64,000 bases of DNA from Mytilus galloprovincialis (lineage: Eukaryota > Mollusca > Bivalvia > Mytilida > Mytilidae): contig NC_134839.1 in NCBI RefSeq assembly GCF_965363235.1, positions 99,405,743-99,469,742 of the forward strand, written 5' to 3'. The first letter of the stretch is position 1, and each line of letters begins with the position of its first letter. The position numbers were made by a program, and so were the translations under genes. Positions 8,541-32,809 of the stretch are shown here, in pieces. The notes below the pieces were generated by a model, which worked only from the letters and a program-made list of their open reading frames with translations, was not told the origin of the DNA and did no database searches.

Positions 8541-8834
8541 CAGAAATTGAAGAATGCAAATGCAATGAATGCGGTAAAACATTTAAAACTGGAAAAGGTT
8601 TAAAAATTCACATATCGAAAGTTCACGGAAAACCATCAAATCAAATAACATCGAATGTTAAAACCTCAAAATCAACAATTGAACAAGAAACAAAATATGA
8701 GACACAATTTCAATGTCAAAAATTGGACAAGAATCAAGACCATGATGGCTGCAACTCAATAATATCAAAAGAAAAGGTTCCTGTTATGCTAGACGAGGAG
8801 CTATCTTCATTAAAATCGTCAGACAATCAACAAG
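8541..8834 (+). CDS. zinc-finger exon 1 of the cGAS-like gene
   Basis: A phase 1-1 exon of 294 nt between TTTTTTGCAG and GTATGT. It encodes CNECGKTFKTGKGLKIHISK followed by VH, a C-x2-C-x12-H-x4-H zinc finger, then a polar Lys/Ser/Glu-rich linker ending in SSDNQQ. An ATG-initiated reading frame across the acceptor (8376-8603) is a different frame and breaks the finger, so it was not used. Confidence 0.8.
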
Positions 8835-11800
8835 GTATGTACATTTTTTACATATATTTTGGGTCTTTCTTTCTACTGACAGTAAGTAGTATCAGTATTC
8901 AAAGTGGTTTGTTGTTTTGACTTTTCTTGACGAATTCCAAAACACGTTTAGGGATAGTTTTTTTTAATTATAATATATATAAATGACGTGTTATTTCAAA
9001 ATGATGTACCAGTTAGTTTAATTTACATAATTTAAATAATGATTTATATATGTCGATTTTTTTTTTACTTTGTTAAACAATATATGTATGAAAATATACC
9101 ACAAAAAATAGCTGTCTTTCCTTTTAGATCAGCCAATTTGTCAACAAACTGAAAGGTATGATGCATAATATCGCTAAAACAACTGATGTGTTTAGCTCAA
9201 TTTTTGTTCTTATTATACTATTGCTTTCATTTGCCTGTTGGCGTTACGCAATCAACAATCAATCTGTCATGTTATCGCTCTATCCTCTAGCTGTAGATAC
9301 CTGTTTGTATTGCTATTGATAAACAATGATTGTATTTGACATAAGACTAGCACCGGGAAAACAGTATCAATGCATATGTAGACTGAGGTATAAAATAAGT
9401 GAAACGAATGCTAGTGTTTCATGACAGGAAAGCAAGCCATTGAGAAAAAATGAAAAGGGCTACTACTATTCCGGGAATTCAAAAAAACAAAATCAGTTAA
9501 ACGCATTTTAATAATTGTTAATAGATGAATGCCGACGTTGCTAATGAAATGATTCGAGTAAAATCTGCTTACTATTGTTAGTTTTTAATATGCCTTTTAA
9601 CATCTTTGAGACTAACCAGGAATTATTATGATTCTTTTCAGCTTTACTTAATTAGGATTTATTTACTAATATTACAATAAAGTATAGCTAATGAAGTGAC
9701 TAGATAGGAAACAAGTCATTTTGTTGAAAATTTAAGTTCCTGCGTTTTATTATGACGTCACAAGTTGTACTAATACTGATTTTTTTACGAAAAAATCAAT
9801 GAAAATTGGTACATTTCCGTAGATTGTTGGACAGGAAACATACAGTGCATACGTCATCAACAGAGATCTTTTAAATAATGTTTGTGAAGGCACTGTACAT
9901 GTCTTATTTCAATATTTAGTTTGTCGACGCCTGCACTCTATGCTTCCTGGTCCAAAATGTGGTTGAAATCCAGCTGATTTTGTCAAATTTCACCAAAATT
10001 TCTTATCTAGACTTTTTGAGATGTAAACATCAACGTGCAAGAATAAAACTTTGACAAAAATAGATTTATTCAACTTTATCACATGTCTTTAAAGTCAACT
10101 TAAACCAGTTTTTGTCTTGTAACAATGAACTTTATAATCGGGGCCAAATTAGGCCCTTACCGAACTTACTCCTTTGTTATCTTAAATCTTTAGATATCTA
10201 CTAGTATCTAATTTTAAATGAAATATGATATTGTTCTGGGTTACCCTGAAATGCTATTTTACTACCAAATAATAAAGTCTATTTAGAAGTGAAATACGGG
10301 AAAAAATGAGAAAGTAAATAAAAAGAAATTTGTTAAGCTCAAGGTGCAGTTTGTTGACTTTGAGGAAGCTTTTTGCATATTCCGTTAAGGTTTACACAAA
10401 GTTAATTTCAATATGTTTTATATTTGATACTTTTCCCTCAGTTTAAGTTTGTAACCCGGATTTGTTTTTTTCGATCGATTTATGAATTTCGAACAGCGGT
10501 ATACTACTGTTGCCTTTATTTAAAGTATTAACATCAAAGTTGCCATTTATCTTTTTCTTCAGATACATAGATATCAATATAGGTAAAATCTCTTTTTTAT
10601 GGTAAAGATTTGGCTCATAACTGTTTTGACTAAAACGTATGTGTAAAATTGACTTTTTGGGTCAAGTTCGAAAATTTTAGCATGTTTACAATGACATCAG
10701 TGAAAACAAAATTAAATGCTTTGGCTGAAATTTCAAAGTTGTATAGATCTAACATATCTTTTGATGTATTGAGGACTTTTACATTTCTGCAATTTCAGGG
10801 GCCAAATTATGGCTCTTACATACTTTCTCTTTTGCAGGCTCAAAACTGTTTCAGTCTAGCTTCAAACAACGAAAGTACAAATTGTTTTTCATATGTGTAT
10901 TTTTGTTTTTAACGACATATGATTAACCATTTCAAACCGACGGGGTTTCAAATGTCATGATCATACATAAATAAACATTAAAAAAAATTTGGTAAAAGAA
11001 TATTATTTAGTCACATGAAATAACAACAGTTAGTGAGACGATTAAAAACAAGTGTGTTTTAAAAAAAAGTGGTAGGTAACAGTATTGAAAGAAAAAAAAC
11101 GGTTAAAGTCTTTAAGTAGGAGGTTCTTTCGATTTTACTGATATAATCATATGAAAGAATACTCGTTTTTCAACAAAGAGCTACATGTTTATTTATATTT
11201 GTATTTACTAATGGAAATGCTAATTCAAGTTATTTATTCAATTTGAAGAAACAGAAAAAGCTGGATTCAAATGTAATCATTGTGAAAAGTCATTTAAAAC
11301 AATCAGAGGATTGAAAACGCATGTTTCAAAATCACATAAAGTTTCAACGAAAAATGGACATGATAATCCAAGCCTACCAGTAAACGAAGATACAAGTGAT
11401 AATGCAGCAGTTGAAAAGAAGGAAAATTCAGATGAAGATGTATTTCAGAAGGAAGATAGTGTGGAAGCATGCTCCAATGAGGACGAAGAGTCGGTTTTAG
11501 ATGATAGTGAGCTTGTATCTTCACCAATCATCGAAGATACGTCCATGCTTAGTTGTGAGTAAAACCACCATTGATTCCCCCCCCCCCCCCCCCCGTTAGT
11601 CATTTTCAAATTTGCATTTTTCAACAAAATTTGCGTAATTTATCTTTGTTTCAATTAGAAAAAAATGATAATTAGAATGAGTCAAGTTTTATTCTGTCCA
11701 TTACTACAATTTCACATAAAATTTCATTACAAATAAGTGTAACGAAGTAAGTTCTTTGGATTGTCAAGTGGCCAGTGTTATACCAAACTAAATTTAAATA

Positions 11801-14800
11801 TAAATTTAATAAACATAAATTCAGCATAAATGAAATAATGAAATGAATACATACAAATATAACTAAATAAACACACACAAAACAGAACTAAATATAATGT
11901 TTTGAAATAAACAATTAAAGTCCGCACACCTCCTCCGGGTGCGAGAATTTCTCGTTGCATTGAAGACCTGTTGGTGACCTTCTGCTGTTGTCTGCTCTAT
12001 GGTTGGGTTGTTGTCTCTTTGACACATTCCACATTTCCATTCTCAATTTTAATTTTACGTACTGTAGAATAATTTTGGGTTGTTCCCCTTGAATTGCTTT
12101 TATATATAACGGACAGAAAATAACATATTTTGACACATTTTTGGTTGATTCCAAATTGAAGATAAGAACACTAGATTTTATACTTTTACTCCAATGATAA
12201 CTTCAAATGAGCAATGATGACTTGAAACTGCATAATACTGCACGGAATGCTCGATTCGTTAAACATATATTTAAACGGACTTCTTTGAATATTTCTAACG
12301 GATAATTTCACCGACTCCAGGCGTTGTAATTGATATCAGCAAATACCGAGTTTTAACCATATTACTAATAATACATCATTTGTCTCTCCGACACTATATA
12401 TCACCGACCAGTCGACGATATTTACTACGTGCTGTACGCACATCAAAACCGGGCCTAAAAACCTCTGAGTGTTGTAATAATACGCCTTGGGATATCCATG
12501 TCCTATACTGACAATTGTAATACCCAACTGCTTTTTTACCAACTGTAGATTCAACACAAGCGTGTGCTTTACTCAATGGCCATGTGTCGACTGATTTGAA
12601 TCTAACCTGTGAAATTGCAATAGGCGCGTAATCGCGTGATATACATGAAAGGTCTGCTTGACTATATAGTCCGGTGTTTACGACAATAAGCCCTAACATA
12701 AAATATAGTCCTATGTGAAATAAATATATATAAATAAATAAATGGAGTTTGTTACAATAAGATAATAACCATCACTGAAAGTAAACCAAATAAATTTTAA
12801 CCCCTTCTTATACTGTTAAGAACCAACCATGTCACCTGAACTTTCTAAAATATTGCAGAGGAACAGCAAATAAAAAGGAATGGTGCCTTGAAGACACCCG
12901 AGATATATGTTTATAACTCAGATTTTTGTTTTTGCAATGAAATGCAGGGTTTATGTCAACAATCAAATTCAAGGGAATATTTTTTAAACCATTTTTCGTA
13001 TATAACCGGATGTGACTTACTTTGATTTGGGGGTATGACACAAAGTTAAATTACTGTTGTACATGCAAAAAATTAAACGAAAATTCCTTAAATCATCAAT
13101 TGAATAATTTGTCTCCGGAAATACAAATTCTATGCTAGTGAATTTATGTACATATTTACTGCTTACATATGCATTTATTTAAACTTCAATTTACAGGTGT
13201 TCAAAACGCTGTGTTCAAATGTAATCTGTGTGAAAAATCATTTAAAACAAACAGAGGATTGATAACGCATGTTTCAAAATCACACAAAGTTTCAACAAAA
13301 ATTGGACACGAAGGACCTGGAAAGAAGAAAAAATCATCAACAGATGGAGATGAATTCCAGAATGAAGATATTGTGGCACCAAGCTCGTATGAGGGTGAAG
13401 AGTCGGTTTTAGGTAATAGTGAGTTAGCCCACTACCTATCAAGGAAAGTTGATCATGCTTACTTGCATTGACTTTTTTTTTCTTGGAAAGTATGACGCAA
13501 AATGTTTCTCTTTTTGTCTTGCTTATGATGGAAAGATTGTAACAGAAATTCCAAAAATCATCAATTAAATGATTAGTGGCTTAACTGTCTTAAAATTTCT
13601 TTTAACAAGTACTACTTGTGTATTTATGTATTCATGTACGTATTTACTGCTTACATATACATGTATTTAAACTTCAATTTACAGGTGTTCAAAGCTCCGT
13701 GTTCAAATGTAATATGTGTGAAAAGTCATTTAAAACAAACAGAGGATTGAAAACGCATGTTTCAAAATCACACAAAGTTTCAGCGAAAAATGGACATGAT
13801 AGTCCAGTCTTACCAATAAATGAAGATACAAGTGATACCGAAAGACCTGGAAAGAAGGAAAAATCATCAGCAGATGAAGATAAATGCCAGAATGAAGATA
13901 TTGTGGAGGCAAGGTCCAATAATGCCGAAGGGTCGGTTTTAGGTAATAGTGAATTGGTCCGTTCACATATAATCGGAGATAACACGAATATATGGCCATA
14001 TTTAGGTGCATGTTTACTTTTATTTTGACAGTATTTAACTAATTTCAATAGAGACGAACAACGATATGCCATTTATAACCAAATCCTGAAATGACAATAA
14101 AACCCCAAAGTTTAGGGAACGCGATCTGTTGCTATGTATTGGGTAAAAAAAAAGGAGAAATGGATAACGCCATGGCACAAAACTTTTAAGTTTTAGTTTG
14201 TGACACGGATTTGTTTTCGCTTAATCGATTTATGAATATTGAACAGCGTCAAAATAGTGTTGCCATTATTTAGAAGCTTCGACTAGGGTTTTTTTTCTGC
14301 GAATTGTTCGTTATTCAAAATATTAGGTTACGTAATTAAATTATTAATCAGCATAGAGAGAGAGAGGGAAAAAAATTCAATTACAATTATTTTCAATATA
14401 AACATCTTTAACCCCGTTAAAGAAGACAAATGGGAAAATGGCATTTATATGTTGAATAATATTTTCCACCATTTTGACTCTCAAAACCACTCCATATGTC
14501 GCTGTTGTTTATTAATGAAAAAGGCCAATCATTTATATTTTTTATCTTATTGATAACAATTAATTTTTATTTGTTATCACAAGTCCGTCTAGAAGTCTTC
14601 CCTAGGCATCACTGAAGAGACTTCTCATTTTGAAATGCGCGTCTATTGCAGTGAAATTTGTGCAATGTTTTTTACTTCTTTTTTTTGCCATTTTGCCTAT
14701 AATCTTGAGAACTATAAAGAATAGATAGATACTTGAAGAAAGGGTCAGAAAGACAAGATCTAAAAAATGAATAAAAATTTTGCCGAAAACGTTAGTAGAC

Positions 14801-17800
14801 TCTTTGAATGAGTGATTGCCTCGAAAATGACGATGTTTAACAGTTTTGAAACACACAAAAGATGAAAAGATGAAAAGAAACCTATGGCACCCTTTCTTGG
14901 CATTATAGCTTTCAAATGATTACAACTGAAAGCATATGCAATATATAACCATGTCATTACCATGTAAAAGAGTTCGAGGAACATTCAAACTCATAGATAG
15001 AAAGTAAACTGACAACGCCATGACTAAAAATGAAAAAGAAACACAGACAAATCATAATACAAAAGAAACAACATAAAAAACTAAAAACGTGTAAAATGGT
15101 GTTTGAATTTACAAAAGTCCCTCCAGGTATTTGAGGAGTTTTTCCATCATTTTGTTCTTTTTAGTTTGTCAAATTTTATTGATTGGTGTTGAGTTGTTGC
15201 AATCTTAACCTCGATCTTGCATCCAAAACTATAAAGAATTATAGATCGAAAGTATTTAATCAAATTATTCAGCAAACTTAACCTTCCGTAATATTTTTTC
15301 AGTGATACAAAAACATGTTACAGATCAAGGGAACCAACTAGGTGTTAAACATTATATGTCAGGCGTTTCTTTATTTCTACAAGTTTATGGCGATAACGTA
15401 ACGTCCATTTTAAGTTACGTTTTAATGATTAACTAAGTTTAATTACTTTTCGCCGTTAATTTTCGTACATTCTTTTTGGAATACAACTAACGAATTTCAA
15501 AAAACGAAATAAATTCAAACCTGAAATCGGTAAATTCCTTATGGAAATGTATCACTTGTTCGATTGGAATTCAGAAGATTCTAGTTAGATCTTTATGATT
15601 CTTATTGAAGTAAATGTGTCCAAAGTTTATAACTTTACCATCTAAACATACTAAAGAAAGTTGTATTATGTTTAACTCTCATCATGTAAAAATGTTACAA
15701 AAATATTCTCCTTTAAAACTACTGGGCCAAATTTAACCAAACTATTTAGTACGATGTGTCTGATGACCTCAAATGCAATTAATATGACCGACATGGATAA
15801 AAATAAATTCAATACAGAAAATCTGACAGGACAGATTTTTGAGAATATTCTGATTGATGTACCTAAAGATCATTTACTACAAACTTGCAAAGACTGTTTC
15901 TAATGAGAGTTATTGCCCTCAAATGACCAATTTCTATTTACTTTTTCCCCTCTTATCTTGAAAATACTATAGATAGAGCGAAATTTTAACATTTAAAATT
16001 ACCAGCAAGACGAGATCTATAAATGAGCAAAATATGGCCAAAATCATAGGACAACTCATTTAGACAATATTTACCATTGTTTGCCTATTTGTCTATTATC
16101 TTGAAAACTATAAAGAAAAGATGGACATTTAAAAAAAATATCAGCAAGACAAATAAACTCATCATAGATAACAGGACTGAATTTAGTATATACGCCAGAC
16201 GCGCATTTCGTCTACAAAAGACTCTTAAGTGACGCTCGAATCCAAAAGAGTTAAAAAGGCCAAATAAAGTACGAAGTTGAAGAGCATTCAGGACCAAAAT
16301 TCCTAAAAGTTTTGCCAAATACAGCTTAGGTAATCTATGCCTGAGGTAGAAAAGCCTTAGTATTTCAAAAAGACGCGCGTTTCGTCTACAAAACACTCAT
16401 CAGTGACGCTCGAATCCAAAAAATTTAAAAAGGCCAAATAAAGTACGAAGTTGAAGAGCATTGACAGGTCTACAAATAAATCAAATTGTGTAGATTCTTT
16501 GTAGGAGTGATTGCCCTCAAATGGCGATATTTAACATTTGTGTGTGTGTGGGCAAAACCAGCGGAAGATAGAAAGCAACTGTAGAAACCAAAGATCAACA
16601 AAAAAGAGACGTTATATTTTAGTTTACGATGTTTGTGGTTGTACATTGTTGAAGATGCATATAGACCTATGCAAGCCATACATTTAATGATCATAAGAGC
16701 CTCTAATTGTGCATATAGTATAGATAAAAACATTCAGCAAAAGGTAGCATGCATGTTCGATGTCAACATATAAATAACTTTATAATTTCATTTCAGTCGA
16801 ATCAAAATCTCTAGATTCCACTGACGAAGAAGAAGAAGAAAGTAACGACGACGATAATGAGGATGCTGTGTTGCCTGAAGTTTTAGAATCTGATAAAGAA
16901 ACAAATTCTGAATCGCTAAAAGGTATATACCTGTAACGTCTATGTTATATAGGCACCTACGTTTAAATATTATATTTGTATAGTGTCATAGATCAAACTT
17001 ATTCGTTCAATGAATGTTTACTTGTTTTTGTTTAGAGATCTTTATGATTTCATTTGATATTTTATAGTATGTCTTTTTATGTTGTAATGTAACACTTCTG
17101 TCTTAGGTTAGGGTGAATGTTAGCGCCTGTTTAAATGTAAAAATCACGCTGTATGTCTATGCACCCGTCCCAAGACCGGAGCCTGTTGTTCAATGGTTGT
17201 CGTTTGTTGAGATAGTTTATAGGTGTTTCTCGTTTTAGTTTTTTTTATATAAATTATACCGTTGGATTTTCTATTTGAATTGTTTCATGTTTGTCACTTT
17301 GGGGCCCTTTCTAACGTGCTGTTCAGTTCGAGCCAAGACTCCGCGTTAAAGACTGTATTTTGACCTGTATTTGTTAACTTATTATACATTGCGACTTGGA
17401 TTGAGAGTTGTCACAAAAAAACTCATACCACCTCTTCTGATTTGTAAATAAATCTTACAGTGGATGTGTTTTCTGGGTTTTTGGTTTGTAACCCGGATTT
17501 GTTTTCTAACAATCGATTTAGGAATATTGAATACCAGTGTACTACTGTTGCTTTTACTTATTTGATCGTATGAGGATTATATATTGTGAAATAATGTAAA
17601 ATTCTCGAAGTTGTTTAACAATTTCCTTTTAAGCGAGTGTAGAGCGTGATACAAGACCAGTCTCTACGAAGACTAAGCGAATTGTAGATAAGCTGAAAAA
17701 AGAAAACAGCCTGACAAAATCAGAAACTTCTGTAGCAGTAACAGAAACAAAGAAACTTGTGGACACATTTTTTGAACATCTCAGAGTTATATCACCAACA

Positions 17801-20800: not shown

Positions 20801-23800
20801 CTTATACTAAGCATCTTCTCAGCAGTCAGCACGGGTATTTTCCGAGCTATACTGATAAACCTCATATTTCTCTTTGAAAATTAAAAAACAATTTAACCAC
20901 TGGCTAATCGTCTTTGAATATATATACTGATTATACTGAACATCGTCACAGCAATCAACATAGATATTTTCTAAACTATACTGATAAACAATCACAATTC
21001 TTATATAGAAAATTGGATCAATAAACACTAGCTACTTGTCTGCGTCAATAAACTGAATACGGGTTATTTCCGAGCTATACTGAACAACGTCATAACAGTC
21101 AGCACGGGTATTTTCCGAGCTATACTGTTAAAATACCTTCAATAACTATCTAAAAATTGAAACAAAAAACGCTAGCTCTTGTGATAATTCAAATATACTG
21201 ACCATCTTCATATCAGTCAGCACGGGTTTTATTTCCGAGCTATACTGAATATCATCTCATCAGTCAGCACGGGTATTTTCCGAGCTATACTGAACCTCTA
21301 CACATCAGTCAGCACGGGTTTTTCTGAGCTATACTGATAAAACAACTTATATCACAGGAAAAGAAAATAGCACTAATATGGAGATAACAACATTTGAAGA
21401 CAATGGGAAGAAAACATTGCGTAAAAGCCAACGTAATTCAAGAACCAACCTTACAAGATCAAGCTTAAGTCCACAAAAAACTCCAAACTTAGTAAACATG
21501 GTTAATGAAACATCTAAACCTTACAAGCTCAATGCTGATAAAGCACTAGAAAAGAAACGCTCAAATTGCAATGCAGAACATCTGCAAACTATAATGAAAC
21601 AAAATGGTAATTTCAGGATGTACATGAGCACAGCAGCAAATGAATTAACAAAAGCAAAGCTCCCCGTTATCCTTAAGAAGTACACAGACAATGAATGTCT
21701 TGCTATTACTATACACAGAGGGCTTGACCTGAATATTGCTGAAGTAGACACTAGATTTCGTGTTCTTAACCAACTAAAAACGGGAAAGCCAGGAAATAAG
21801 CTTAAATTCACAATCAATTGCTACCATACAAGCACTTCCCTCCTTGTTAATGGATCAAAGCTGAATTTATTCATTGAAAACATCTTGCCCAAATTAAAAG
21901 AAGCAATAAACGCAAATTGTAGCAACCTTAATGAGCTTAACTACAGAATTGAAAATTCAATTGTTTGAAGCATACAACAGTGTCAAACAGAGCATCAGCA
22001 AATTGCTTCTAAAATTCCACAATCAACTACTAAAACCAAAGAATGTGAACAATCTTGCCAAATAGTAGCTAATACAAATGATAGCATACAAACAGAAATG
22101 GAAAATATAGATATTTGTCCAGTATGTCAAAAACAGGCCGATGATGACACCATTGAATGTGAAGAATGTAATGACTGGCTACATTTTGAACGTGTAGGAC
22201 TTACAAAAACCCAAGTCCAAAAAATAGATCATAGCATACCATATATATGTAAACAATGCATAGAGAACCAGCTGTATCAACTTCCAAAAGACATGGATAA
22301 TACCATAGATGTCTCTATACAACAACAGAGCGTTGAACAAGAAACTAATCAAGACTCCACTCCCCAGTCAGCACGGGTTTTTCCGAGCTACACTGGAACT
22401 GATAATGACAGCGCAAACCTCCCCCCAATGGTTAAATCAATAACTGGAATTACGCCAAGCGAAGCAACCACATCACATCTGGCACATGCTTTTCCAAATT
22501 GCACTGGTTCAACAAATGATATTTCATGTACTGATATCCATCCAATAACTAAAGCCATAGCTAAAACTACGCAACAAACAGAAGAAGAATTCAACAAACA
22601 GGTCTCCAGTCAGTCAGCACGGGTTTTTCCGAGCTATACTGACATGACAACCTCTACAGAACAGCAAAATGAGCAGTTAGTACAGATAACCAATACATCC
22701 AACCTTGTTCCAAATGTGCAACAAAAAGTTACTGCCAAACTAACAAAAGCTACCAAGAATACTGGTCCTAATCAAAGACAACAATCAAAAGCCATGGATT
22801 CATCTCAAAGAAGTTATGTAATAGATCTAGAAAGGAAATTAAAAGATCGAGATAGAACAATAGAAATTATGGAAAAGAGGCTATCTCAGCTAGAACAAAG
22901 AGATCAAAGATCATCCTTGAACAACCAAGAACAGAACTATGGAAACACCTGCCATACAAACAATGGGTGTAGCTCAAACAACAATAGCTGCCAAATTCAA
23001 CAAATTATGAACAATGTAAAAAGGCTTGAGTTCCAGCTTACTCAACATATGTGTATGAATACAGCACTGACTACACAAATGGCAATGCAACTGCAGCAAA
23101 GTATACTCCTAAAACAGGCAACATGCCCACCTACAATGCCACTGCCTGCACAATACCAGCAATACAATCATGGAATGTATACAGTGAATCAATCAACAGG
23201 GACATATATTCCCCCTTCATTTCATATACCACCGCCATTGCCTACTTTCAGACCACACCAGTTCATGAACCATCAAACGGGTCAACCCACACCAACAATG
23301 TTGCAACAACCCCCGCTATTTCATCATCAAATACATGTACCATCCTTCATCCAACCTCCAAACCAAAGACCTCAGTATCAGAATATTAACCATCCGATTG
23401 GTCCAGGAATACCACCACCAACATATTTGCAAAGTGGCTTCAATATAAATCCTCCAAATAGACAATCAAACCAAGCTCAGAAAAAAGAATCATCTGTACT
23501 TCACCAATATTCTGTGGACTCGGCCCAGACAGAAAAGGATAACCATGAAGATCAGTCCAGAGCTAATATAGATATGCCACAAAAGGATGATCTGGACTCT
23601 CACGAGAAAGAATTGACAGAAACTAACAAGGGAGCAAGACCAAAGATAATAAAAAAACTCCCCAACAAAGAGACAAAGGAAAGAAAGCAATCAAAACAAC
23701 TAGATTTAAGAGTGGCTATTAAACACATAGAAGAACAATCAGTGGATCAAAATCGCCAACCGAACCATCATTTTTTAGAAATTCCAAGCCTCAAGAAAAT

Positions 23801-26800
23801 TCCACCAATTCTAGACCCAATACAAATGGAAAACAACCCTACCAGAATATAGACGTCATAACTTGTAACATTGAGGGTATAAAGGCAAATATGAAATTTC
23901 TAGAACATTTATCTCAGAAACATGCATTTATCTGTCTGCAGGAACATTGGCTTTGGACTTTTGAAAAGGACTACATTGATAAAGATATACCAGGCATGAT
24001 TAATCATAGTCGATGTCACGATGTTAACGATCCAATATCAAACTTTCAAATACCAAAAGGAAGAGGGGGTGTTGCAATTCTTTGGCCATCATCCTTAGAT
24101 TCTCATGTGAAAAAGCTAGAAGACGGAAACGAACGAATAATAGCTATAGAAATTCAAACTAGGAATAAAGCTACCTGTCTAGTGAATGCGTACATGCCAA
24201 CAAAAAAATCCAACTCTGACGTAGACTATCAAGCTCACTTAGACATTTTACAGGCTATTATGGATAAATATGAAGATACACATACGATCGTATTCTGTGG
24301 TGCTATGAATGGTACCTTAATGAAGGAAAGAAACAATAGTCACGATAAGAAGCTTACTAAATTTATCCAATCCAACAAATTGAACGTACATCAGGAGATG
24401 ATCACAAATTCAACGCCAACCTTATACCATAATGACGGCAAATCAACTTCACAAATAGACTATATATTTTCAAACAACGACGTTATAAATACTGCCATGG
24501 TAATGCAACAAGATCCTATTAACTCATCATCACATCTGCCGGTCATAGCAAATTTACCAAAAGATTAAAGACAGAAGTGAAAAAAGGAAAGAAAAGCCAC
24601 ACCACTTATAAACTTTTATGGGAAAAAACTGACAAGAAAGAATACAAAAACGTCCTCAACAAGATGATTACAGCTTATAACTGGAACGACTCTGATGTGA
24701 ACGAAAAAGTAAGCCAACTTACTTCCATTCTTCACAAAACAGCAGACAAAGTAGTACCTAAAAAACTCATCAAGCTAACTGGGTTCAAAAACAAAGCCTC
24801 TCCAAAAGTTAGACAGCTGATACAGGCAAGCAAACAGAAACACAGAGAATGGGACAACGCTGGACGACCAAGAAACAACCATATACTTTTCGTGGGAAAA
24901 AAATCAGCAAAAAGGGCTTTGCGTCGTCAACAACGAAAAGAAGCAGCGATAGAAAGAGAACAATTTCTGCAACGACTAGAAAAAGACCCAAATGATAAGG
25001 CTTTTTTCCAATTGATCAAGCGAAATCAATCCAGTATAAAGAGCAATGGTCCTGAAATTCTGATAGATGGCGATAAAACATCAAAAACGCCTTCAAATCA
25101 AAGAGAAACTTTTGCAGACTACTTCAAAAATCTAGCCACTCCACAAGAAAATCGGAATTTCAAGGACGAATTACTTTCTCACAGCACAAATAGATGCAAT
25201 TTAATTAAAGAGGTCTCCAAAAATAGTACCAAAAGGAAAATACTATTAACCCAACAAGAAATATTAAATGCTATTCAAAAACTTAAAAATGGAAAGTCGC
25301 CAGATGAATATGGTATCACAGCTGAACATATCAAATATGCAGGGAATGAAATAACCCATATATACCAAAACATTTTCAACCAGATATTTAAGGAAGGAAA
25401 AGTTGCAACCAGCTTTAAAACAGGCATAATAACGCCAGTTCCAAAAAAAGGGGAAAGATTTAACTCAAGCTACAAATTACAGAGGCATAACAGTTACATC
25501 TGCTCATGGGAAAGTATACGAGTACGTGCTGATCGAAAAGACAGGTTTAAAGAATATCAATCAATCAAACCTACAATTCGGCTTTACTGAAAGACTCTCA
25601 CCTACTATGGCGGCACTGATATTATCAGAAGTATACTCAGAAATCAATGGAAAAGATTTATTATTCATAACAACATTAGACAGTCAAAAAGCATTTGATG
25701 TAGTCAATCATCAAATCTTGCTAGACAAACTCTACTATCTAGGAGTAGATATTGAATACTGGGATGTTATTGAGGATATGTACAATGGTGTCACATCAAG
25801 CGTGAAATGGCAGGAAGAAACAAGTCTCTCGTTTAGTATTGATCAGGGAGTAAGACAGGGTGGAATCCTATCTTCGCATCTATACAAACAATACATCAAT
25901 GAATTACTCTCTGAACTAGAAACTCATAACATGGGCATATCTATAGGGAATACTTATGCAGGCTGTCCTAGCTGTGCAGATGATATTGTACTTCTCTCAA
26001 ACGACCAAAATGAAATGCAAGAAATGCTCAACACGGTGTATGATTACTCAAGCGACCATAGATTCTTAATCCATCCAGTAAAAAGCAATACAATAGTTAA
26101 AAGTGTCAACAAAAGAACTAGTGAAAGAATACAACAATCAATTACTTTAGGCGATAACATTATGGAATTTAAATCAGAAACAACACATCTAGGTCTTAAA
26201 AAAACAACATCTGAGGAAACTAAAATTAATATCAATGACAGGATATCACTAGCACGAAGAACTCTGTACTCTCTGATCAAGACTGGCGTTCATGGTACAA
26301 ATAGACTCAACCCAAGAACTTCATGCAAGATTTACCAAGTATACGTCATTCCACGTCTTCTATATGGCTTAGAAAAATTAAATCTCCAAAACAAAGACAC
26401 AGTAGCACTATGCAGTTTTCATCTTAGCACTCTGAAGCATATCCAATCACTTCCAAATAGAACAGCTACATCAGCAGTCTACTTGCTTCTTGGAGCGCTG
26501 CCAATAACTGCTGAGCTCCACAAAAGACAGTTGAGTCTGTTACACTCAATAGCAATGAGTCACAATAACTCAATACGTGAAATTGCATGGAGGCAACATA
26601 CAGCAGGTCGACCAAATAGCTTCTTCAAAAGAATAAATGACATACTGGACATGTATCAACTCCCATCATTCAACGAAATAATGAATCAACATTACAACAA
26701 GCTTGACTGGAAAAACATCGTACGAACAGCTATTTCATCTCACTGGACAGTCAAACTAAAAGCAGATTGTGAAGAAAAATCAACACTCAACTTGCTATCA

Positions 26801-28867
26801 AAAAGAAACCTGAATATTGGACAAACTCACAACGTATGGGATACAATATCGAGCTCCGTCAAAGATGTTAGAAAAGCAGCGACAAAAGTACGCATGTTAA
26901 CTGGAACATACATGCTTCAAACCTTAAAAGCAAAATTCAATCAAGCAGAGATAGATCCTACCTGCCCAATATGTAAGATTGAAGCTGAAGATCTTCAACA
27001 CCTTCTAACAAGTTGCCCAGCGTATAGACACATTCGAAAATCGCACTTTCAACAGATAAAAGAATATATTGTTAGCAAAATTGGAAGTAGTGTATGGACA
27101 ATCAATTTCAATAGCAAATTGGCTATCACGGAATTATTGATAGACTGTCAAAGCTTTGTTGAAAGGAATATTCTCCCGAATGACAAACTGATATTAAGAA
27201 CAATAGAAATGAAATCAAGGGACTACTGCCACCTAATCCACATGAAAAGAATGAACATTACTAATGCCTAGCTAGTGCGTGGAGTTAGGGGCATATCTCT
27301 GTGTATGGTCAAGCCAGTGTCATTTCAAAAAACTTAAAAGTAATACGCCATACGAACATTATTAAACTAATCAAAATAATACTTCTATAACATCAAAGTC
27401 ATGATTTCAGTTTATATAAATTTTCATCTTATAAGAAAACTTAGATACTTTATTCTTACACTAAAAGTACATGATAATTATACTATATCTTGGCAGTTTA
27501 AATTAACGTTAAGCATAATTAAATAATGTAACTCAACATCCAAATTAGTCATGCTTATGTTTTATATTGCATTGAAAAGCACCTGTTTAAATTTATGAGT
27601 CTGCGAACATGTAATTTATTTAGTATACCTCTTGCCAATTTAATACTACATTACTTTAAAAGTCCCTATATTAATGCTTATATATAAATTCACGACTTGT
27701 TGTAAATACACTGGTTTTTATGGTGGAGGATGCTGTTCATTCATATTTTACATAGGATTTATTGCGTGTTTTAATGTACATATACTGTTAACATTTATCG
27801 GTCTCATCCGAGTGCTCCTAAACAGGAGGGAATTACGAAAGAAGAAGAAGAAGCGGAGTGAACCGTTGGTCTGACTCTCTAAATAACTTTCTGGTTTCTT
27901 CGTTTCTTATAATCAGAATTACATAATATGTTACATTGACAAAACCGACAACGCGAGTACAATAGAAAAGTAACTCCTCTTTTGAACAATCGACAATATC
28001 CATTGTAAAACCATGCCGGTGACGATATTGATTAAAATTTATTTATTAAACTGGGTTGCGTTCAATATCATAGCGGCTACGTAGTGCTACGTTGATTTGT
28101 GTCTACTTAAACGAGTAGCTAGTCTAGCTGCTGTCAATATCTATGTAGCAACTAAGGTAGCTACACATTCAATAGTCATAAATCTACATAGCCCTATGTA
28201 GCTGCTACAATATTGAACGCAACCCAGCAATCGTATATTTCAAAGAGGAAGTATTTGTTATACTACGTTTATCTGAAATAAGCATGCAAATACATATGTT
28301 TCACTTACTCCTTGGCATGTTAAAACTTTCAAAAATATTTATATGTTCTACACCTAAGTTTTCCGTTCAGTGACCGTATCAGCAGTATATTTGTCATATT
28401 TCAGACAATTTTATTAATAAAATTTATTATTGTGTTACAAGTTATATTGTGTAATTTCAGATGTTGAAGACAGTCATCTTTTCTGGCGATTGTCATTTTC
28501 ATACACAGAGAAGAAACTGGTAAACTCGGCTAACAGTGTCGATAAATTCAGCACAAAGAAAACAGTATTCAGATTAATAAAATCACTCATTCAAGAACTG
28601 AAAGATAATAATCCAGCAATAATGAAAAAATTCTGTTCGTATCATATCAAACAGTTTATGTTTAAACAATATGATACATGGGGGGAAATATATGATGATG
28701 CGAAAACTCTTAGAAATGTTCTACAGAAATTGTTGGAGCAACTGTCAAGTTCACCCCCTTTTATAGAGAATTATTTTATAGAAAATGATAATGTAATCAG
28801 ATATGTTCCACAGACCGAAATTGCTTTGATTGTAAAATTTCTACTAGACAAAATGAAAGAATTATGA
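8541..28867 (+). CDS. C2H2 zinc-finger cGAS-like receptor (Mab-21 nucleotidyltransferase), 5' end not found
   Basis: Exons: 8541-8834, 11249-11554, 13197-13412, 13685-14005, 16797-16922, 17634-17848, 18625-18871, 19148-19366 and 28461-28867, with possible micro-exons at 9128-9155, 10563-10582 and 15303-15341. All have AG/GT borders and compatible phases, giving about 800 residues plus a missing start. Four C-x2-C-x12-H-x4-H fingers and acidic linkers precede a complete nucleotidyltransferase. Visible are GSYYDKTK, then DEFDIM and IDIDLV (the GS and acidic catalytic motifs), then WRLSFSYTEKKLV, SYHIKQF and IENYFIE of the helical lobe. The order and spacing match vertebrate cGAS. The Cys-rich zinc thumb of vertebrate cGAS is absent, as in cGAS-like receptors (cGLRs). 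The family makes cyclic dinucleotides that activate STING; ligand and product here are unknown. That all exons form one transcript is inferred from strand, order and phase. Confidence 0.8.
9128..9155 (+). CDS. candidate 28-nt micro-exon A
   Basis: Bordered by CTTTCCTTTTAG and GTATGA. Joined in phase 1 to the previous exon it reads DQPICQQTE and leaves phase 2. Alone it would break the frame, but the next candidate (20 nt) restores phase 1, so the pair adds exactly 16 codons. It could be chance; nothing homologous supports it. Confidence 0.35.
10435..10525 (+). repeat. CCCGGATTTG repeat family, copy 1
   Basis: Contains GTAACCCGGATTTG, then ATCGATTTATGAATTTCGAA and CTACTGTTGCCTTTATTTA. Related copies are at 14190-14275, 17476-17562 and 33330-33418. 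I recognise the sequence as part of a common mussel repeat; no coding potential. Confidence 0.75.
10563..10582 (+). CDS. candidate 20-nt micro-exon B
   Basis: Preceded by a strong acceptor (ATCTTTTTCTTCAG) and followed by GTAAAA. Entered in phase 2 from micro-exon A it reads YIDINI and exits in phase 1, matching the next zinc-finger exon. The good polypyrimidine tract and frame agreement are the only evidence. Confidence 0.35.
11249..11554 (+). CDS. zinc-finger exon 2 of the cGAS-like gene
   Basis: A phase 1-1 exon of 306 nt; acceptor at TTTGAAG, donor GTGAGT. It encodes the finger CNHCEKSFKTIRGLKTHVSK plus SH, then an acidic linker with EDTSDN, SDEDVFQKEDS and ESVLDDSELVSS. The acceptor was set by alignment with exons 3 and 4; a second AG six bases downstream would keep the frame and drop two residues. 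The same linker wording in exons 3 and 4 shows that the three exons are duplicates. Confidence 0.85.
11578..11594 (+). repeat. poly-C tract
   Basis: An uninterrupted run of about 17 C, 24 bases after the exon 2 donor. Such runs are length-unstable; the exact length here may be unreliable. Confidence 0.9.
11920..12060 (-). repeat. mussel dispersed repeat (AAAGAGACAACAACCC family)
   Basis: On the minus strand it reads GTGTCAAAGAGACAACAACC, then AGAGCAGACAACAGCAGAAG and a segment ending in CACCCGGAGGAGGT. I recognise this as a frequent mussel repeat. It explains the minus-strand ORFs here. Confidence 0.65.
12336..12699 (-). other. unidentified overlapping ORFs, minus strand
   Basis: Two overlapping reading frames (12394-12699, 101 codons; 12336-12557, 73 codons) lie antisense in the intron. 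The longer product contains GYYNCQYRTWISQGVLLQHS and a basic end. I do not recognise it. Residue composition looks more protein-like than neighbouring chance ORFs, so it may be a decayed mobile-element or gene fragment. Confidence 0.25.
13197..13412 (+). CDS. zinc-finger exon 3 of the cGAS-like gene
   Basis: A phase 1-1 exon of 216 nt between AATTTACAG and GTAATA. Finger: CNLCEKSFKTNRGLITHVSK plus SH. The linker is shorter than in exons 2 and 4 and ends at EESVL. Without splicing at the GTAATA donor the frame runs to a stop at 13471, and I see no later donor, so this exon probably uses the internal donor. Confidence 0.8.
13685..14005 (+). CDS. zinc-finger exon 4 of the cGAS-like gene
   Basis: A phase 1-1 exon of 321 nt with acceptor TTTACAG and donor GTGCAT. 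Finger: CNMCEKSFKTNRGLKTHVSK plus SH. The linker repeats EDTSDTE, PGKKEKSSADED and GSVLGNSELV. A donor equivalent to that of exon 3 (GTAATA after 13942) is also present in phase 1, so 258-nt and 321-nt forms are both possible. Confidence 0.8.
14960..15080 (-). mobile_element. Penelope-like element tail fragment
   Basis: Matches the 4190-4300 copy with differences: AACTCATAGATAGAAAGTAA against ACACTCATAGATCACATATA in the same order, followed by ACTGACAACGCCATGACTAA. It is the extreme 3' part only. Confidence 0.5.
15303..15341 (+). CDS. candidate 39-nt micro-exon C
   Basis: Acceptor TATTTTTTCAG, donor GTGTTA, length 39 nt, phase 1-1. It would insert VIQKHVTDQGNQL between zinc-finger exon 4 and the acidic exon without disturbing frame. 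Symmetric phase and a strong pyrimidine tract favour it; no homology evidence. Confidence 0.4.
16190..16470 (-). repeat. two decayed hammerhead-ribozyme repeats
   Basis: Two partial copies of the ribozyme repeat lie in tandem about 180 bp apart (ribozyme parts at 16192-16235 and 16372-16409), each followed on the plus strand by AAGGCCAAATAAAGTACGAA. On the minus strand the first has lost the essential core G (CTTAAGA for CTGATGA). The second keeps CTGATGA and GAAAC but has lost the stem I partner after the cleavage site. Neither should cleave. Confidence 0.75.
16797..16922 (+). CDS. acidic linker exon of the cGAS-like gene
   Basis: A phase 1-1 exon of 126 nt with acceptor TTTCATTTCAG and donor GTATAT. 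It encodes ESKSLDSTDEEEEESNDDDN and a Glu/Ser-rich continuation. The low-complexity acidic segment probably is a flexible linker between the finger region and the enzyme. Confidence 0.75.
17150..17415 (-). repeat. GCCAATGAGACAACT mussel repeat, inverted copy
   Basis: On the minus strand it begins TGACAACTCTCAATCCAAGT and includes the GGGCCCCAAAGTGAC and GAAACACCTATAA portions of the family. Plus-strand relatives are at 39549-39860, 41829-42118, 48165-48252, 54250-54560 and 57878-57955. Confidence 0.7.
17476..17562 (+). repeat. CCCGGATTTG repeat family, copy 3
   Basis: GTAACCCGGATTTG, AATCGATTTAGGAATATTGA and GTGTACTACTGTTGC in the same order as the copy at 10435. It ends 71 bases before the next exon. 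Confidence 0.7.
17634..17848 (+). CDS. cGAS-like exon with the GS motif
   Basis: A 215-nt exon from acceptor CCTTTTAAG to donor GTAAAG, phase 1 to 0. It encodes a basic segment, then the spine helix KKLVDTFFEHLRVISPTLKW and the nucleotidyltransferase GS motif in NSGSYYDKTK (Gly-Ser codons at 17825-17830). In cGAS the equivalent sequence begins the catalytic core. Confidence 0.9.
17849..18624 (+). other. intron after the GS-motif exon
   Basis: AT-rich, 776 bp, no repeat or gene recognised. The ORF at 17974-18198 looks like chance. Confidence 0.6.
18625..18871 (+). CDS. cGAS-like exon with the first two catalytic acids
   Basis: A 247-nt exon, acceptor TTATTTAG, donor GTAAGT, phase 0 to 1. It begins NDQADEFDIMIYPDNIQVEV; the Glu (18640) and Asp (18646) occupy the metal-binding positions of the family. 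The later GFYKVKFESPRVE and the helix KFKEYVFGLFDQVF follow the order seen in cGAS. Confidence 0.92.
19148..19366 (+). CDS. cGAS-like exon with the third catalytic acid
   Basis: A 219-nt phase 1-1 exon; acceptor TTTTTTTTAAG, donor GTAAGA. It encodes SPAYTIFYNGIPGKPIDIDL, whose first Asp after PI (19219-19221) aligns with the third catalytic Asp of cGAS, followed by VPCFRINTWPCI. A competing AG two bases downstream would break the frame. Confidence 0.9.
19367..20008 (+). other. start of the 9.1-kb intron
   Basis: AT-rich, without a recognisable exon. The 5' boundary of the inserted LINE must lie somewhere here before the first ORF, but I see no clear junction. Confidence 0.5.
20009..20743 (+). 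CDS. SGNH-hydrolase-like ORF of the LINE
   Basis: An intact ORF of 244 codons. Near the N-terminus PVLLSDSKG resembles block I (Ser in the GDS-like motif), WLGTCNL resembles the block with the conserved Gly and Asn, and YSDGLHPGHTLARYW near the C-terminus provides the Asp-x-x-His of block V. Esterase-like domains of this fold are known in the first ORF of several LINE groups, where they may help bind RNA or lipids. Here it is a separate ORF upstream of a PHD-containing ORF1. Nothing signals secretion. Whether it is catalytic cannot be told from the sequence. Confidence 0.65.
   Translation: MSLNKLHKQLSKPEISPSNTRAYTPVLLSDSKGIKLKNKVFSDHPVTQHIQWWCKGGETFQNRYDWLKANLSSKLTTTGNIWLYVWLGTCNLTRKDGRYISIRSTDNSTVDKCVEYIEKIIKLIKEYPNNKISILEIPVYSISTDNKSLRHSSPEQVESQDKQLEEQIHTLNSYIRNINKALGVYSLQFTTDFQNHRKVKAHQHPENRNYCYFELYSDGLHPGHTLARYWLRKISNQMSRDCWK
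20823..21336 (+). repeat. array of seven hairpin repeats between two LINE ORFs
   Basis: A motif of about 32 nt, starting CAGTCAGCACGGG and ending CCGAGCTATACTG with a T-rich middle, occurs at 20823-20854, 20952-20983 (decayed), 21054-21082 (partial), 21096-21127, 21214-21247, 21261-21292 and 21306-21336. The two halves are imperfect inverted complements (CAGT, AGC and CGG against CCG, GCT and ACTG), so the RNA can fold into a short stem with a U-rich loop. Spacing is irregular and intervening sequence differs, so this is not a simple tandem repeat. Three more copies lie inside ORF1. Confidence 0.9.
21378..23852 (+). pseudogene. LINE ORF1 with PHD finger, one in-frame stop
   Basis: The reading frame is open from 21378 to 23852 except for a TGA at 21966-21968, after ENSIV. 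The first part has a domain with INCYHTSTSLLVNGS, which I associate with ORF1 proteins of related invertebrate LINEs. After the stop comes a PHD-type zinc finger, CPVCQKQADDDTIECEECND onward to YICKQC; the usual Cys after the His (HFxC) is Arg here. Then follow a coiled-coil stretch (RKLKDRDRTIEIMEKRLSQL), a Gln/Pro-rich region and a basic tail. Two or three hairpin repeats are translated in it as SARVFPSYT. ORF1 products bind the element's RNA. Confidence 0.75.
22365..22641 (+). repeat. hairpin repeats within LINE ORF1
   Basis: Copies at 22365-22395, 22476-22506 (decayed) and 22611-22641 match the non-coding array upstream. They are 31 nt rather than 32 and are read as QSARVFPSYTG, HLAHAFPNCTG and QSARVFPSYTD. 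Confidence 0.9.
23852..27271 (+). pseudogene. LINE ORF2: endonuclease and reverse transcriptase, two frameshifts
   Basis: ORF2 overlaps the end of ORF1. The endonuclease part (to about 24560) shows TCNIEGIKANM, FICLQEHW, GRGGVAILW, FCGAMNGTL, QIDYIFSN and SSSHLPV. The Asp expected in GDxN and in SDH is Ala and Ser, respectively. A frameshift near 24555-24565 leads into the second frame (24577 on); a second near 25470-25480, just before NYRGIT, leads into the third. RT motifs then appear: DSQKAFDVVNHQ, QGVRQGGILSSHLY and catalytic CADDIVLLS. The C-terminus has a CCHC-like CPICKIEAEDLQHLLTSC. No RNase H is seen. The stop at 27269-27271 is followed by a 3' UTR. Confidence 0.85.
27272..28050 (+). 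other. LINE 3' UTR and intron remainder
   Basis: AT-rich sequence after ORF2, with a purine-rich GAAGAAGAAGAAG at about 27840-27852 as a possible LINE 3' terminus. No exon recognised. Confidence 0.5.
28051..28227. mobile_element. 177-bp MITE with CTGGGTTGCGTTCAATAT ends
   Basis: The first 18 bases CTGGGTTGCGTTCAATAT reappear as a perfect inverted complement at the right end; the similarity extends inward (GGCTACGTAG against GCTACATAG). The interior repeats GTAGCTAC-like words. No clear target duplication. It lies 233 bp before the last exon of the cGAS-like gene. Non-autonomous DNA transposon is the simplest reading. Confidence 0.8.
28461..28867 (+). CDS. last exon of the cGAS-like gene (helical lobe)
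   Basis: Acceptor TGTAATTTCAG, entry phase 1, stop TGA at 28865-28867. It encodes DVEDSHLFWRLSFSYTEKKL at the start, then FRLIKSLIQELKD, KKFCSYHIKQFMFK and IENYFIENDNVI, which follow cGAS block by block. Between EKKLV and FRLIK there are no Cys residues, so the zinc thumb of vertebrate cGAS is missing. The distance from IDIDLV to WRLSFS across the exon junction matches cGAS, so no exon is missing in the large intron. Confidence 0.92.
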
Positions 28868-31312: not shown

Positions 31313-32809
31313 TTACTTCCGTCTATATATAAAATCCTTGCGCTGACAAACCTGTCCACCCATATTGATTTTCTTTAAGAAGCGGCTTTTCCTGAATATG
31401 TTTTCTATTTCCTCCTTTTGATCCAACATTTCATTCCCTGAACAACTGATGCTCCTCAAGTCAGGACAAAACGTAACCAGCTGCTCTAGACTTGATTCAT
31501 TCATGTCCGAATTTAGAAATTCTATTTTTTTCACATGACTATGTTTTTCAATGAGAGAACGTCGTTTTTCTACGAAACATAATAACTGTTGGTTTTTTAT
31601 CAAGTTCAGCTTTTCAAGATTTTCACATCTATTGATTGACACAAATCGTAAATGTCGATGATTTAGTAGCAAATGTTCTATGGTGGTAACGTCAAAGTCT
31701 AGTCCAATTATATCTATATGAAACAGACATTTACTGTATTCTGATACAGCTAATAGACCATCATTGGAAAAACATTCGCTTTGTATTTCAAGAAACTTCA
31801 AATCAGTACAGTGTTCAACTAGATTTCTTATACCGGTATCATCCAATTTTGGACAGTTGACCATACATAAATGTTTTAATTGACTACACCCTGACCCAAG
31901 AGCTTTCAGGGTTTCAGGATACAACTGAATACCACTACCAACTGCTGGAATATTATAAATTTGTAAATTTTCTAGTCTTGTGCAGTGTTCCGCGATATAT
32001 TTTACTCCAACGTCGGAAAGTTTGGGACAAAACAAAATGTGTAATGTTTTAAGATTTTTTGCTGTTGAAGCAATATTGTTAATTCCATCGTCGTCTACAT
32101 TTGTACTTGTAAGGTCAATTGATGTCAAATGACAGGGATTGATTAAACCATCAAAAGACTGACTGTCAATCCCTGTGCAATTACTTAAAACTAAATCATT
32201 CAGCTGTGTAGCATGTCGTAATGTCTTGCATATTGTCTGGTTTTGTACATCTGACGACTGTATAGATAAACTTCTTAAATCTCTTTGCTTTGAAATGAAC
32301 TGATCTAAACACTGATTTAATATTGTTTCATTTGCCCCTTTGGATATAGATATGTCAAAGTCTCGGAACTGAACCCTGTTGAAAACTGTTATACACCCGA
32401 CAAAGTCTGCGGAACGAAATATTCGCAGTCTGATTGATGTTAATTTCGGATATGAATTGACTATATTTAGACAGACATCTCTCTCGTTACCAGGAAGGTA
32501 ATTGATAATTTGAAGATTTGCAATATTTGGAAGATCGTAATTAATACCGTTGCTGAACAACTTCATAAGATGGTCACTTTTAATCAACAGGTTTTGAACA
32601 AATTGTCCGATGCGGGAAAAATGTTGAAAGCATAGATCAAAATCCTCATCACTGAATTTGATTAAATTAAGAATTATCCACAAATCACTACACAGCGCAA
32701 CTCCATTCCAATAGCTACAAACTTGACTTGTATTCCTTAATAAATCAAGTTTGGTTAAGCATGAAAATATATTCGTTAACACTTCTGGTGGAAGGTGGTT
32801 AACATTCAT
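31313..32809 (-). CDS. F-box and leucine-rich-repeat protein
   Basis: A 498-codon uninterrupted ORF. Residues about 4-45 form an F-box (NHLPPEVLTNIFSCLTKLDL, then CSYWNGVALCSDLW). The rest holds leucine-rich repeats of the cysteine-containing type found in FBXL proteins: LNDLVLSNCTGID, LTSIDLTSTNVDDDGINNI, LKTLHILFCPKLSDVGVKYI and LKHLCMVNCPKLDDTGIRNL. FBXL proteins are substrate receptors of SCF ubiquitin ligases, the F-box binding Skp1 and the repeats the target. The ORF could start 23 codons earlier, but the intervening TTTTTTTCTTCATCTTGCAG is a textbook 3' splice site ending at 32832, so translation more likely begins at MNVNHLPPEV in the second exon, after a 5' UTR intron. Target unknown. 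Confidence 0.9.
   Translation of the reverse strand: MNVNHLPPEVLTNIFSCLTKLDLLRNTSQVCSYWNGVALCSDLWIILNLIKFSDEDFDLCFQHFSRIGQFVQNLLIKSDHLMKLFSNGINYDLPNIANLQIINYLPGNERDVCLNIVNSYPKLTSIRLRIFRSADFVGCITVFNRVQFRDFDISISKGANETILNQCLDQFISKQRDLRSLSIQSSDVQNQTICKTLRHATQLNDLVLSNCTGIDSQSFDGLINPCHLTSIDLTSTNVDDDGINNIASTAKNLKTLHILFCPKLSDVGVKYIAEHCTRLENLQIYNIPAVGSGIQLYPETLKALGSGCSQLKHLCMVNCPKLDDTGIRNLVEHCTDLKFLEIQSECFSNDGLLAVSEYSKCLFHIDIIGLDFDVTTIEHLLLNHRHLRFVSINRCENLEKLNLIKNQQLLCFVEKRRSLIEKHSHVKKIEFLNSDMNESSLEQLVTFCPDLRSISCSGNEMLDQKEEIENIFRKSRFLKKINMGGQVCQRKDFIYRRK

What the first reader, a model, noticed from the sequence alone, without database searches (positions are those of the whole stretch)
8541..28867. 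A cGAS-like receptor fused to an array of C2H2 zinc fingers
Nine well-bordered exons on one strand, all with compatible phase, join four zinc fingers to a complete cGAS-fold enzyme. cGAS-like receptors are widespread and expanded in animals and bivalves; a zinc-finger N-terminus of this kind is not one I know. The fingers could bind DNA, RNA or a partner and give the enzyme a new ligand range or a location (for example chromatin). The conclusion that the exons belong to one transcript is inferred.
Basis: partly seen in the sequence, partly recalled or inferred. Interest (0 to 1): 0.92.

Follow-up and report, generated by a model that had tools for sequence, protein, structure and literature searches.

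The report
Zinc-finger cGAS-like sensor gene
A shellfish-type genome carries a gene that appears to join four small zinc-binding fingers to a complete enzyme of the cGAS family, which in animals detects foreign DNA or RNA and raises an immune alarm, so this sensor may have a second way to grip its target.

Summary
Confirmed with corrections. Nine phase-compatible plus-strand exons (8541-28867) encode four C2H2 fingers, an acidic linker and a complete cGAS-like (Mab-21) enzyme with all three catalytic acids. The enzyme is about 37% identical to the oyster receptor 8GJW; oyster Cv-cGLR1 is dsDNA-activated and makes 2'3'-cUA in print. The proposed 15341 micro-exon is not supported, finger exon 2 has a weak acceptor, and no start exon was found.

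That fingers and enzyme share one transcript remains an inference; no transcript data were available. Support: the first two enzyme-side exons have no in-frame Met; all five upstream exons are phase 1-1; the finger query matches nothing else in the assembly; the acceptor entering the catalytic domain is phase 1 here and in three nearest paralogs. Two paralogs have another phase 1-1 exon upstream, in seven copies and one. Against: the third paralog could start inside its first catalytic exon, and no paralog has fingers.

Best reading: a nucleic-acid-activated cGLR with an N-terminal finger array, a new variant of a known family.

The parts
8541..8834 (+). E1: C2H2 finger 1 and linker; phase 1-1 exon (8544 is an alternative acceptor)
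   Evidence: sequence; acceptor 89th and donor 99.5th percentile; Pfam zf-C2H2; the most diverged of the four finger exons
11261..11554 (+). E2: C2H2 finger 2 and acidic linker; phase 1-1 (11255 is an alternative acceptor; both weak, exon may be skipped)
13197..13412 (+). E3: C2H2 finger 3; phase 1-1; recent duplicate of E4
   Evidence: 77.5% nt identity over 329 aligned positions, including flanking intron
13685..14005 (+). E4: C2H2 finger 4; phase 1-1 (13942 is an alternative in-phase donor)
16797..16922 (+). E5: acidic linker exon, 18 Asp/Glu in 43 residues; phase 1-1; no in-frame Met
   Evidence: highest coding score per codon, 0 of 2000 stop-free noncoding stretches as high
17634..17848 (+). 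E6: start of catalytic domain, basic spine-helix region and GS motif (GGA TCG at 17825-17830)
   Evidence: no ATG in the exon; homologous exon in three paralogs
18625..18871 (+). E7: nucleotidyltransferase core, first two catalytic acids E-F-D (18640-18648)
   Evidence: acceptor only 47th percentile
19148..19366 (+). E8: third catalytic Asp (19225-19227, PIDIDLVP)
28461..28867 (+). E9: C-terminal helical lobe (Mab-21_C) and stop codon TGA
19976..27268 (+). LINE-like retrotransposon reading frames (PHD, endonuclease, reverse transcriptase) inside intron 8; not part of the protein

Best explanation
This is one animal gene that encodes a cGAS-like receptor with an N-terminal array of four C2H2 zinc fingers. 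SHOWN by sequence: nine phase-compatible exons; a complete nucleotidyltransferase domain with the GS motif and all three acidic residues; closest solved relative the oyster cGLR 8GJW; no vertebrate-type zinc ribbon; four basic fingers (net charge +5 to +6 each) with linkers of 50-80 residues, followed by a strongly acidic exon. INFERRED: fingers and enzyme are translated together (my estimate 0.85). INFERRED mechanism: double-stranded nucleic acid, most likely DNA, lies along the basic spine helix and switches the enzyme on to make a cyclic dinucleotide (2'3'-cUA or a cGAMP) for STING. The well-separated fingers with near-identical presumed contact residues act as low-specificity nucleic-acid tethers that raise avidity and clustering, a job that the disordered basic N-terminus does in vertebrate cGAS (recalled). 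The acidic linker next to the spine helix holds the enzyme off until long nucleic acid displaces it. The array grew by tandem duplication of a symmetric phase 1-1 exon, a mode also suggested by the repeated exons upstream of its nearest paralogs.
For: Exons, phases and open joined frame. Domains. Best structure match 8gjw, E 2.6e-57; 36.8% identity over 329 aligned positions, against at most 33% over shorter stretches for the 30 Mab-21 loci that fetched, which do not include the C10 paralogs. 8GJW is the C. virginica cGLR (PMC12424679 legend); Cv-cGLR1 is dsDNA-activated and makes 2'3'-cUA (PMC9980059). Catalytic part pI 8.79, inside the >8.5 range reported for nucleic-acid-sensing cGLRs. No in-frame Met in E5 or E6. 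The finger query matches nowhere else in the assembly at E<=0.01. Between E4 and E6 only two ATG-plus-phase-1-donor candidates with donor score above 0, sharing one weak donor at 15126. Nearest paralogs on C10 share the exon partition: P1 and P2 52-58% identical in E7-E9 and 38-43% in E6, P3 40-52% in E7-E9 and 38% in E6. The acceptor entering the catalytic domain, placed by eye, is phase 1 in 4 of 4 genes. P1 and P2 have 8 copies of a 54-nt exon-like unit and one further shared stretch upstream, all with phase 1-1 AG and GT borders. Same-genome precedent for N-terminal fusions: ankyrin repeats before Mab-21 in L018, L019, L020. Finger duplicates E2-E4 show dN/dS 0.43-0.62.
Against: No transcript evidence. 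Initiator exon not found. E2 acceptors weak. Paralog P3 has an in-frame ATG right after the same acceptor and could be a plain cGLR. No finger lies in the 36 kb read upstream of the three paralogs, and their cassettes are not homologous to this gene's upstream exons, so the fusion has no second instance found in this genome. The cassettes are themselves inferred exons; whether the unit also occurs elsewhere in the genome, as a dispersed repeat would, did not complete. dN/dS is only mildly below 1 and rests on few substitutions. Codon scores of E1, E3, E4 and E8 over their first 45 codons are matched by 8-12% of stop-free noncoding stretches, E9 by 5% and E2 by 4%. The spacing from the second to the third catalytic acid is 98 by my count, outside the 50-90 of the published motif, and the residue before GS is Ser rather than Gln/Thr (motif); 8GJW shares the Ser.
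Confidence: 0.7

Rival explanations
1. Two adjacent genes: a C2H2 gene (E1-E4 plus an unseen terminal exon) followed by an ordinary cGLR gene with an unseen first exon between 14006 and 17633.
For: Most published cGLRs (87%) have no extra domain. Paralog P3 could start in its E6 equivalent. A weak ATG/phase-1 donor candidate exists at 15096-15126. No fingers in the stretches read upstream of the paralogs.
Against: Needs two further unseen exons. Only 2 weak first-exon candidates in 14006-16796 (one donor) and none in 16923-17633; E5 and E6 have no in-frame Met. The finger exons lie on the same strand in the same interval between a minus-strand transporter exon upstream and a minus-strand F-box frame downstream, with no other host gene recognised in it (small exons were not searched for systematically), and share phase 1 with E5 and E6.
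Confidence: 0.13
2. The fusion is real but the fingers bind protein partners or place the enzyme in the cell, and contribute nothing to nucleic-acid sensing.
For: Isolated fingers with long linkers and a Gly at the recalled helix position 3 are not typical sequence-specific DNA readers, so their target is open.
Against: Each finger is strongly basic (net +5 to +6) in an otherwise acidic N-terminus, which favours nucleic acid; one of the matching Pfam subtypes is an RNA-binding type (zf-C2H2_jaz, 3.5e-8).
Confidence: 0.3
3. A decayed locus: a pseudogene with a retrotransposon in its last intron.
For: Weak E2 acceptor; LINE-like reading frames spanning about 7 kb in intron 8.
Against: No stop or frameshift in nine exons over 778 codons and intact GT and AG at every border; intact catalytic residues; the element lies within an intron.
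Confidence: 0.05

Closest known systems
Oyster cGLR1 (Cv-cGLR1 of C. virginica, PDB 8GJW; Cg-cGLR1 of C. gigas)
   Same: Catalytic domain aligns almost end to end (query 36-354 of 361) at 36.8% identity with the same SGS and acidic motifs; basic pI expected of nucleic-acid sensors.
   Different: The PDB chain is 355 residues with about 27 before the aligned core, too short for such an array (whether the natural protein is longer was not checked); the gene here adds about 417 residues with four fingers.
Vertebrate cGAS
   Same: Fold family, catalytic acids and the basic start of the spine helix align.
   Different: No zinc ribbon: the alignment has a gap where the vertebrate Cys/His insertion lies (identity of that insertion recalled). 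N-terminus is a finger array plus acidic linker rather than a basic disordered tail (recalled).
cGLRs with appended domains (ankyrin, TPR, death domain, multi-cGLR; Li et al. preprint PMC9980059)
   Same: Domain fused to a cGLR core.
   Different: C2H2 fingers are not named in that main text ('zinc' 0 occurrences); architectures under 0.5% are lumped as 'Other' with details in Table S2, which I could not read.
Three-gene paralog cluster on C10 of the same genome
   Same: Closest paralogs, same exon partition, phase-1 entry to the catalytic domain.
   Different: No fingers in the stretches read; two of them carry 54-nt cassette exons upstream instead.

Membership tests
cGAS-like receptor (cGLR superfamily) | Mab-21 nucleotidyltransferase domain (PF03281) | tested here: met
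   1.7e-22, 80.9 bits against cut-off 24.1
cGAS-like receptor (cGLR superfamily) | Active-site motif h[QT]GS-X8-20-[DE]h[DE]h-X50-90-h[DE]h | tested here: inconclusive
   GS, E-F-D at X11 and third Asp present, but Ser before GS and 98 residues to the third Asp by my count; the oyster enzyme 8GJW also has Ser there
cGAS-like receptor (cGLR superfamily) | Homology over both the NTase core and the C-terminal helical bundle | tested here: met
   Mab-21_C 3.7e-8; 8gjw aligned over query 36-354 of 361
cGAS-like receptor (cGLR superfamily) | Predicted structure matches cGLR fold | not tested
   the spliced protein is not a contiguous window translation, so it was not sent to the structure tool
cGAS-like receptor (cGLR superfamily) | Synthesis of a cyclic dinucleotide on ligand | not testable with these tools
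   needs biochemistry
cGAS sensu stricto (vertebrate type) | Zinc-ribbon insertion in the C-terminal lobe | tested here: not met
   no such insertion in the two cGAS alignments printed
C2H2 zinc-finger protein | C-X2-C-X12-H-X4-H with the canonical F and L | tested here: met
   four copies
Single fused gene | Spliced transcript joining E4 to E5-E6 | not testable with these tools
   no transcript data; indirect support only

The most novel reading that the evidence does not exclude
A clade of molluscan DNA-type cGLRs builds its N-terminus from tandem-duplicated symmetric phase 1-1 exons that can be added, lost or skipped without disturbing the enzyme; in one member the module is a nucleic-acid-binding C2H2 finger, giving an innate sensor a second, evolvable and possibly alternatively spliced recognition array beside its catalytic ligand groove.
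Probability: 0.35. Interest if true: 0.85.

Novelty: new variant of a known kind. Interest (0 to 1): 0.63.

Why it matters
Bivalves carry very large numbers of cGLRs (over 200 in some genomes, PMC9980059), and that survey tested 140 representatives of about 3,000. A member with its own nucleic-acid-binding array, close to a dsDNA-activated oyster enzyme, would show one way these sensors gain new or stronger ligand recognition and would parallel, by different means, the DNA-gripping N-terminus of vertebrate cGAS (recalled). The repeated symmetric exons in this gene and its paralogs suggest that sensor specificity can change by exon duplication; RNA and binding assays can test this directly.

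Tried and rejected
Micro-exon 15303-15341: negative codon score and the lowest donor rank of the set; rejected. E5 as a relic of a finger-exon linker: protein shuffles reach the observed score in 1545, 1448, 36 and 1389 of 2000 for E1-E4, and codon shuffles in 292, 197 and 471 of 500 for E2-E4 at DNA level; not supported (only the E3 protein comparison is nominally low). Locating the initiator exon by codon and donor scores: 35 candidates against 28 in a control stretch; no signal. A first pass with a donor cut-off of 3 was too strict because at least four of the gene's own eight donors score below it, so I repeated it at 0. Homology of the paralog cassettes to anything in this gene's region: none. 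C2H2 motifs in the 30 Mab-21 loci fetched: 0 of 30 by pattern, but those loci reach only 1.5 kb to either side. E1 versus the other finger exons is saturated at silent sites, so no dN/dS was obtained for it. Rfam and tRNA scans of the window: nothing.

Full report
WHAT IS THERE. Nine exon-like stretches with AG and GT borders lie on the plus strand between 8541 and 28867. With E8 ending at 19366 they join to 778 codons followed by a stop, with no internal stop. Every intron is phase 1 except E6/E7 (phase 0). Finger exons E1-E4 and linker exon E5 are all symmetric phase 1-1. Ranked against every GT and AG in 124 kb with simple matrices recalled from general knowledge, 8 of 8 donors lie at the 92nd to 99.6th percentile and 7 of 9 acceptors at the 78th to 98.5th; the weak ones are E7 (47th) and E2 (41st or below). 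Codon bias trained on 29 reading frames of the same assembly (mostly Mab-21 loci, so not independent of the enzyme exons) is positive for all nine exons, clearly beyond stop-free noncoding stretches for E5-E7 and modestly for the others.

DOMAINS. Pfam gives Mab-21 (1.7e-22), Mab-21_C (3.7e-8) and four C2H2 stretches. The enzyme's best solved relative is 8gjw, 'cGAS-like receptor 1', E 2.6e-57, ahead of vertebrate cGAS at 2e-16 and weaker. A later preprint names 8GJW as the C. virginica cGLR (PMC12424679, figure legend seen as a passage). In the cGLR survey preprint (PMC9980059; passages, and sections 6 and 33 read in full) Cv-cGLR1 and Cg-cGLR1 are dsDNA-activated and make 2'3'-cUA. The alignment places the query's E-F-D and the second Asp of P-I-D-I-D on the catalytic acids of cGAS and shows no insertion where vertebrate cGAS has its zinc ribbon (the residue names are recalled). 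The catalytic part has pI 8.79; nucleic-acid-sensing cGLRs were reported above 8.5. Two features deviate from the published motif: Ser before GS, also seen in 8GJW, and 98 rather than at most 90 residues to the third acid by my count.

IS IT ONE GENE? Indirect evidence says yes. E5 and E6 have no in-frame Met, so the enzyme needs an upstream coding exon. The nearest upstream exons with good borders and the right phase are the finger exons. With the donor cut-off at 0, which all of the gene's own donors pass, only two ATG/phase-1-donor candidates lie between E4 and E5, sharing one donor at 15126, and none between E5 and E6. The interval is bounded upstream by a minus-strand sodium:dicarboxylate symporter exon about 16 kb before the window and downstream by a minus-strand F-box/LRR frame at 31316-32890; I recognised no other host gene in between, but did not search systematically for small exons. 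The finger query finds only its own four exons in 1.385 Gb at E<=0.01, so these are not copies of a common family.

PARALOGS. Searching the assembly with the catalytic part (113 of 415 first-look candidates scored, 97 matches) gave the gene itself and a three-gene cluster on C10 with the same exon partition: P1 and P2 at 52-58% identity in E7-E9 and 38-43% in E6, P3 at 40-52% in E7-E9. I read upstream stretches of each: 12 kb for P1, 18 kb for P2, 6 kb for P3. In all three, as here, the acceptor entering the catalytic domain, placed by eye, is phase 1. P2 has seven and P1 one copy of a 54-nt exon-like unit (about TEKQTDKCEKEKSPSTPLES), 8 of 8 with an ACAG phase-1 acceptor and a phase-1 GT (7 GTGAGT, 1 GTGATT), and P1 and P2 share one further phase 1-1 stretch at 72% DNA identity. 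In these 36 kb the unit is found on the gene strand only, but whether it occurs elsewhere in the genome did not complete. No finger passes threshold in the 36 kb on either strand. P3 has an in-frame ATG directly after its acceptor and may be a plain cGLR. So arrays of symmetric exons upstream of the catalytic domain are seen in this gene and at least one paralog, while the finger module is known here from one gene only.

FINGER ARRAY. E2-E4 are recent tandem duplicates (DNA identities 73-81%, dN/dS 0.43-0.62; E1 too diverged). Fingers are C-X2-C-X12-H-X4-H with net charge +5 to +6, spaced 73, 80 and 50 residues apart; E5 has 18 acidic residues in 43. By the recalled Zif268 numbering all four have Thr at -1 and Gly at 3, which argues against sequence-specific reading and for repeated low-specificity contacts.

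MECHANISM. Shown: composition, motifs and gene anatomy. Inferred: nucleic acid on the spine helix activates synthesis of a cyclic dinucleotide for STING; the fingers tether DNA or RNA and raise avidity; the acidic linker restrains the enzyme. Whether this genome has STING could not be tested.

NOVELTY. The survey states that 87% of cGLRs carry no extra domain and names ankyrin, TPR, death-domain and multi-cGLR forms; 'zinc' does not occur in its main text. The PLoS Biol survey PMC10732462 has 'zinc' 0 times in the main text (abstract and passages seen). Literature searches: 'cGAS-like' + 'zinc finger' + 'mollusc' found 0 papers; 'cGLR' + 'zinc finger' found 8, of which I opened one (PMC10854198, passages: the Zn-ribbon of vertebrate cGLRs and an unrelated ZCCHC3); a search for at least 3 of six terms found 271 papers and listed 40, of which I opened PMC9980059 and PMC11817969 (passages: no fusion described); 'cGAS' + 'Mytilus' + 'STING' found 42 and listed 20, of which I opened PMC6723221 (passages); '8GJW' found one, PMC12424679 (passages). 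Nothing I saw describes such a fusion, but supplementary tables and most subscription papers are out of reach, and protein databases could not be searched. In the same genome, ankyrin repeats precede the Mab-21 domain in three of the nine Mab-21 loci that I scanned with Pfam, so N-terminal fusion as such is not unusual; fingers were found only here.

SPECIES. Not given.

Noticed in passing
L043, L044, L045 (G000:C10 72063180-72069179 and 72089700-72101699, minus strand): A 54-nt symmetric phase 1-1 exon-like unit (about TEKQTDKCEKEKSPSTPLES) is repeated seven times upstream of one cGLR paralog and occurs once upstream of another, with ACAG acceptors and mostly GTGAGT donors; possibly a variable N-terminal cassette array.
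   Followed up: partly
L047 (G000:C10 72035500-72041499): Paralog P3 has an in-frame ATG immediately after its catalytic-domain acceptor, so it may encode a cGLR without N-terminal extension.
   Followed up: partly
L018, L019, L020: Single-frame Mab-21 proteins with N-terminal ankyrin repeats in the same genome.
   Followed up: no
G000: 149 Mab-21 matches among 150 scored of 543 candidates, many on C14 and C5 in clusters: a large radiation of the superfamily.
   Followed up: no
window 19976-27268: LINE-like element with PHD, endonuclease and reverse-transcriptase frames filling most of intron 8; a 45-base tandem repeat lies in its 5' part at 21194-21337.
   Followed up: no
window 5718-6320: Reverse-transcriptase fragment of another retroelement upstream of the gene.
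   Followed up: no
window 31316-32890, minus strand: Long open F-box/LRR protein frame.
   Followed up: no
window 1-1825: 63 copies of a 29-bp tandem repeat at the window's left edge.
   Followed up: no
L005, L006: Two Mab-21 loci on C5 whose matches contain one in-frame stop each.
   Followed up: no
L032:3290-3892, minus strand: Sodium:dicarboxylate symporter exon, the nearest upstream neighbour recognised.
   Followed up: no
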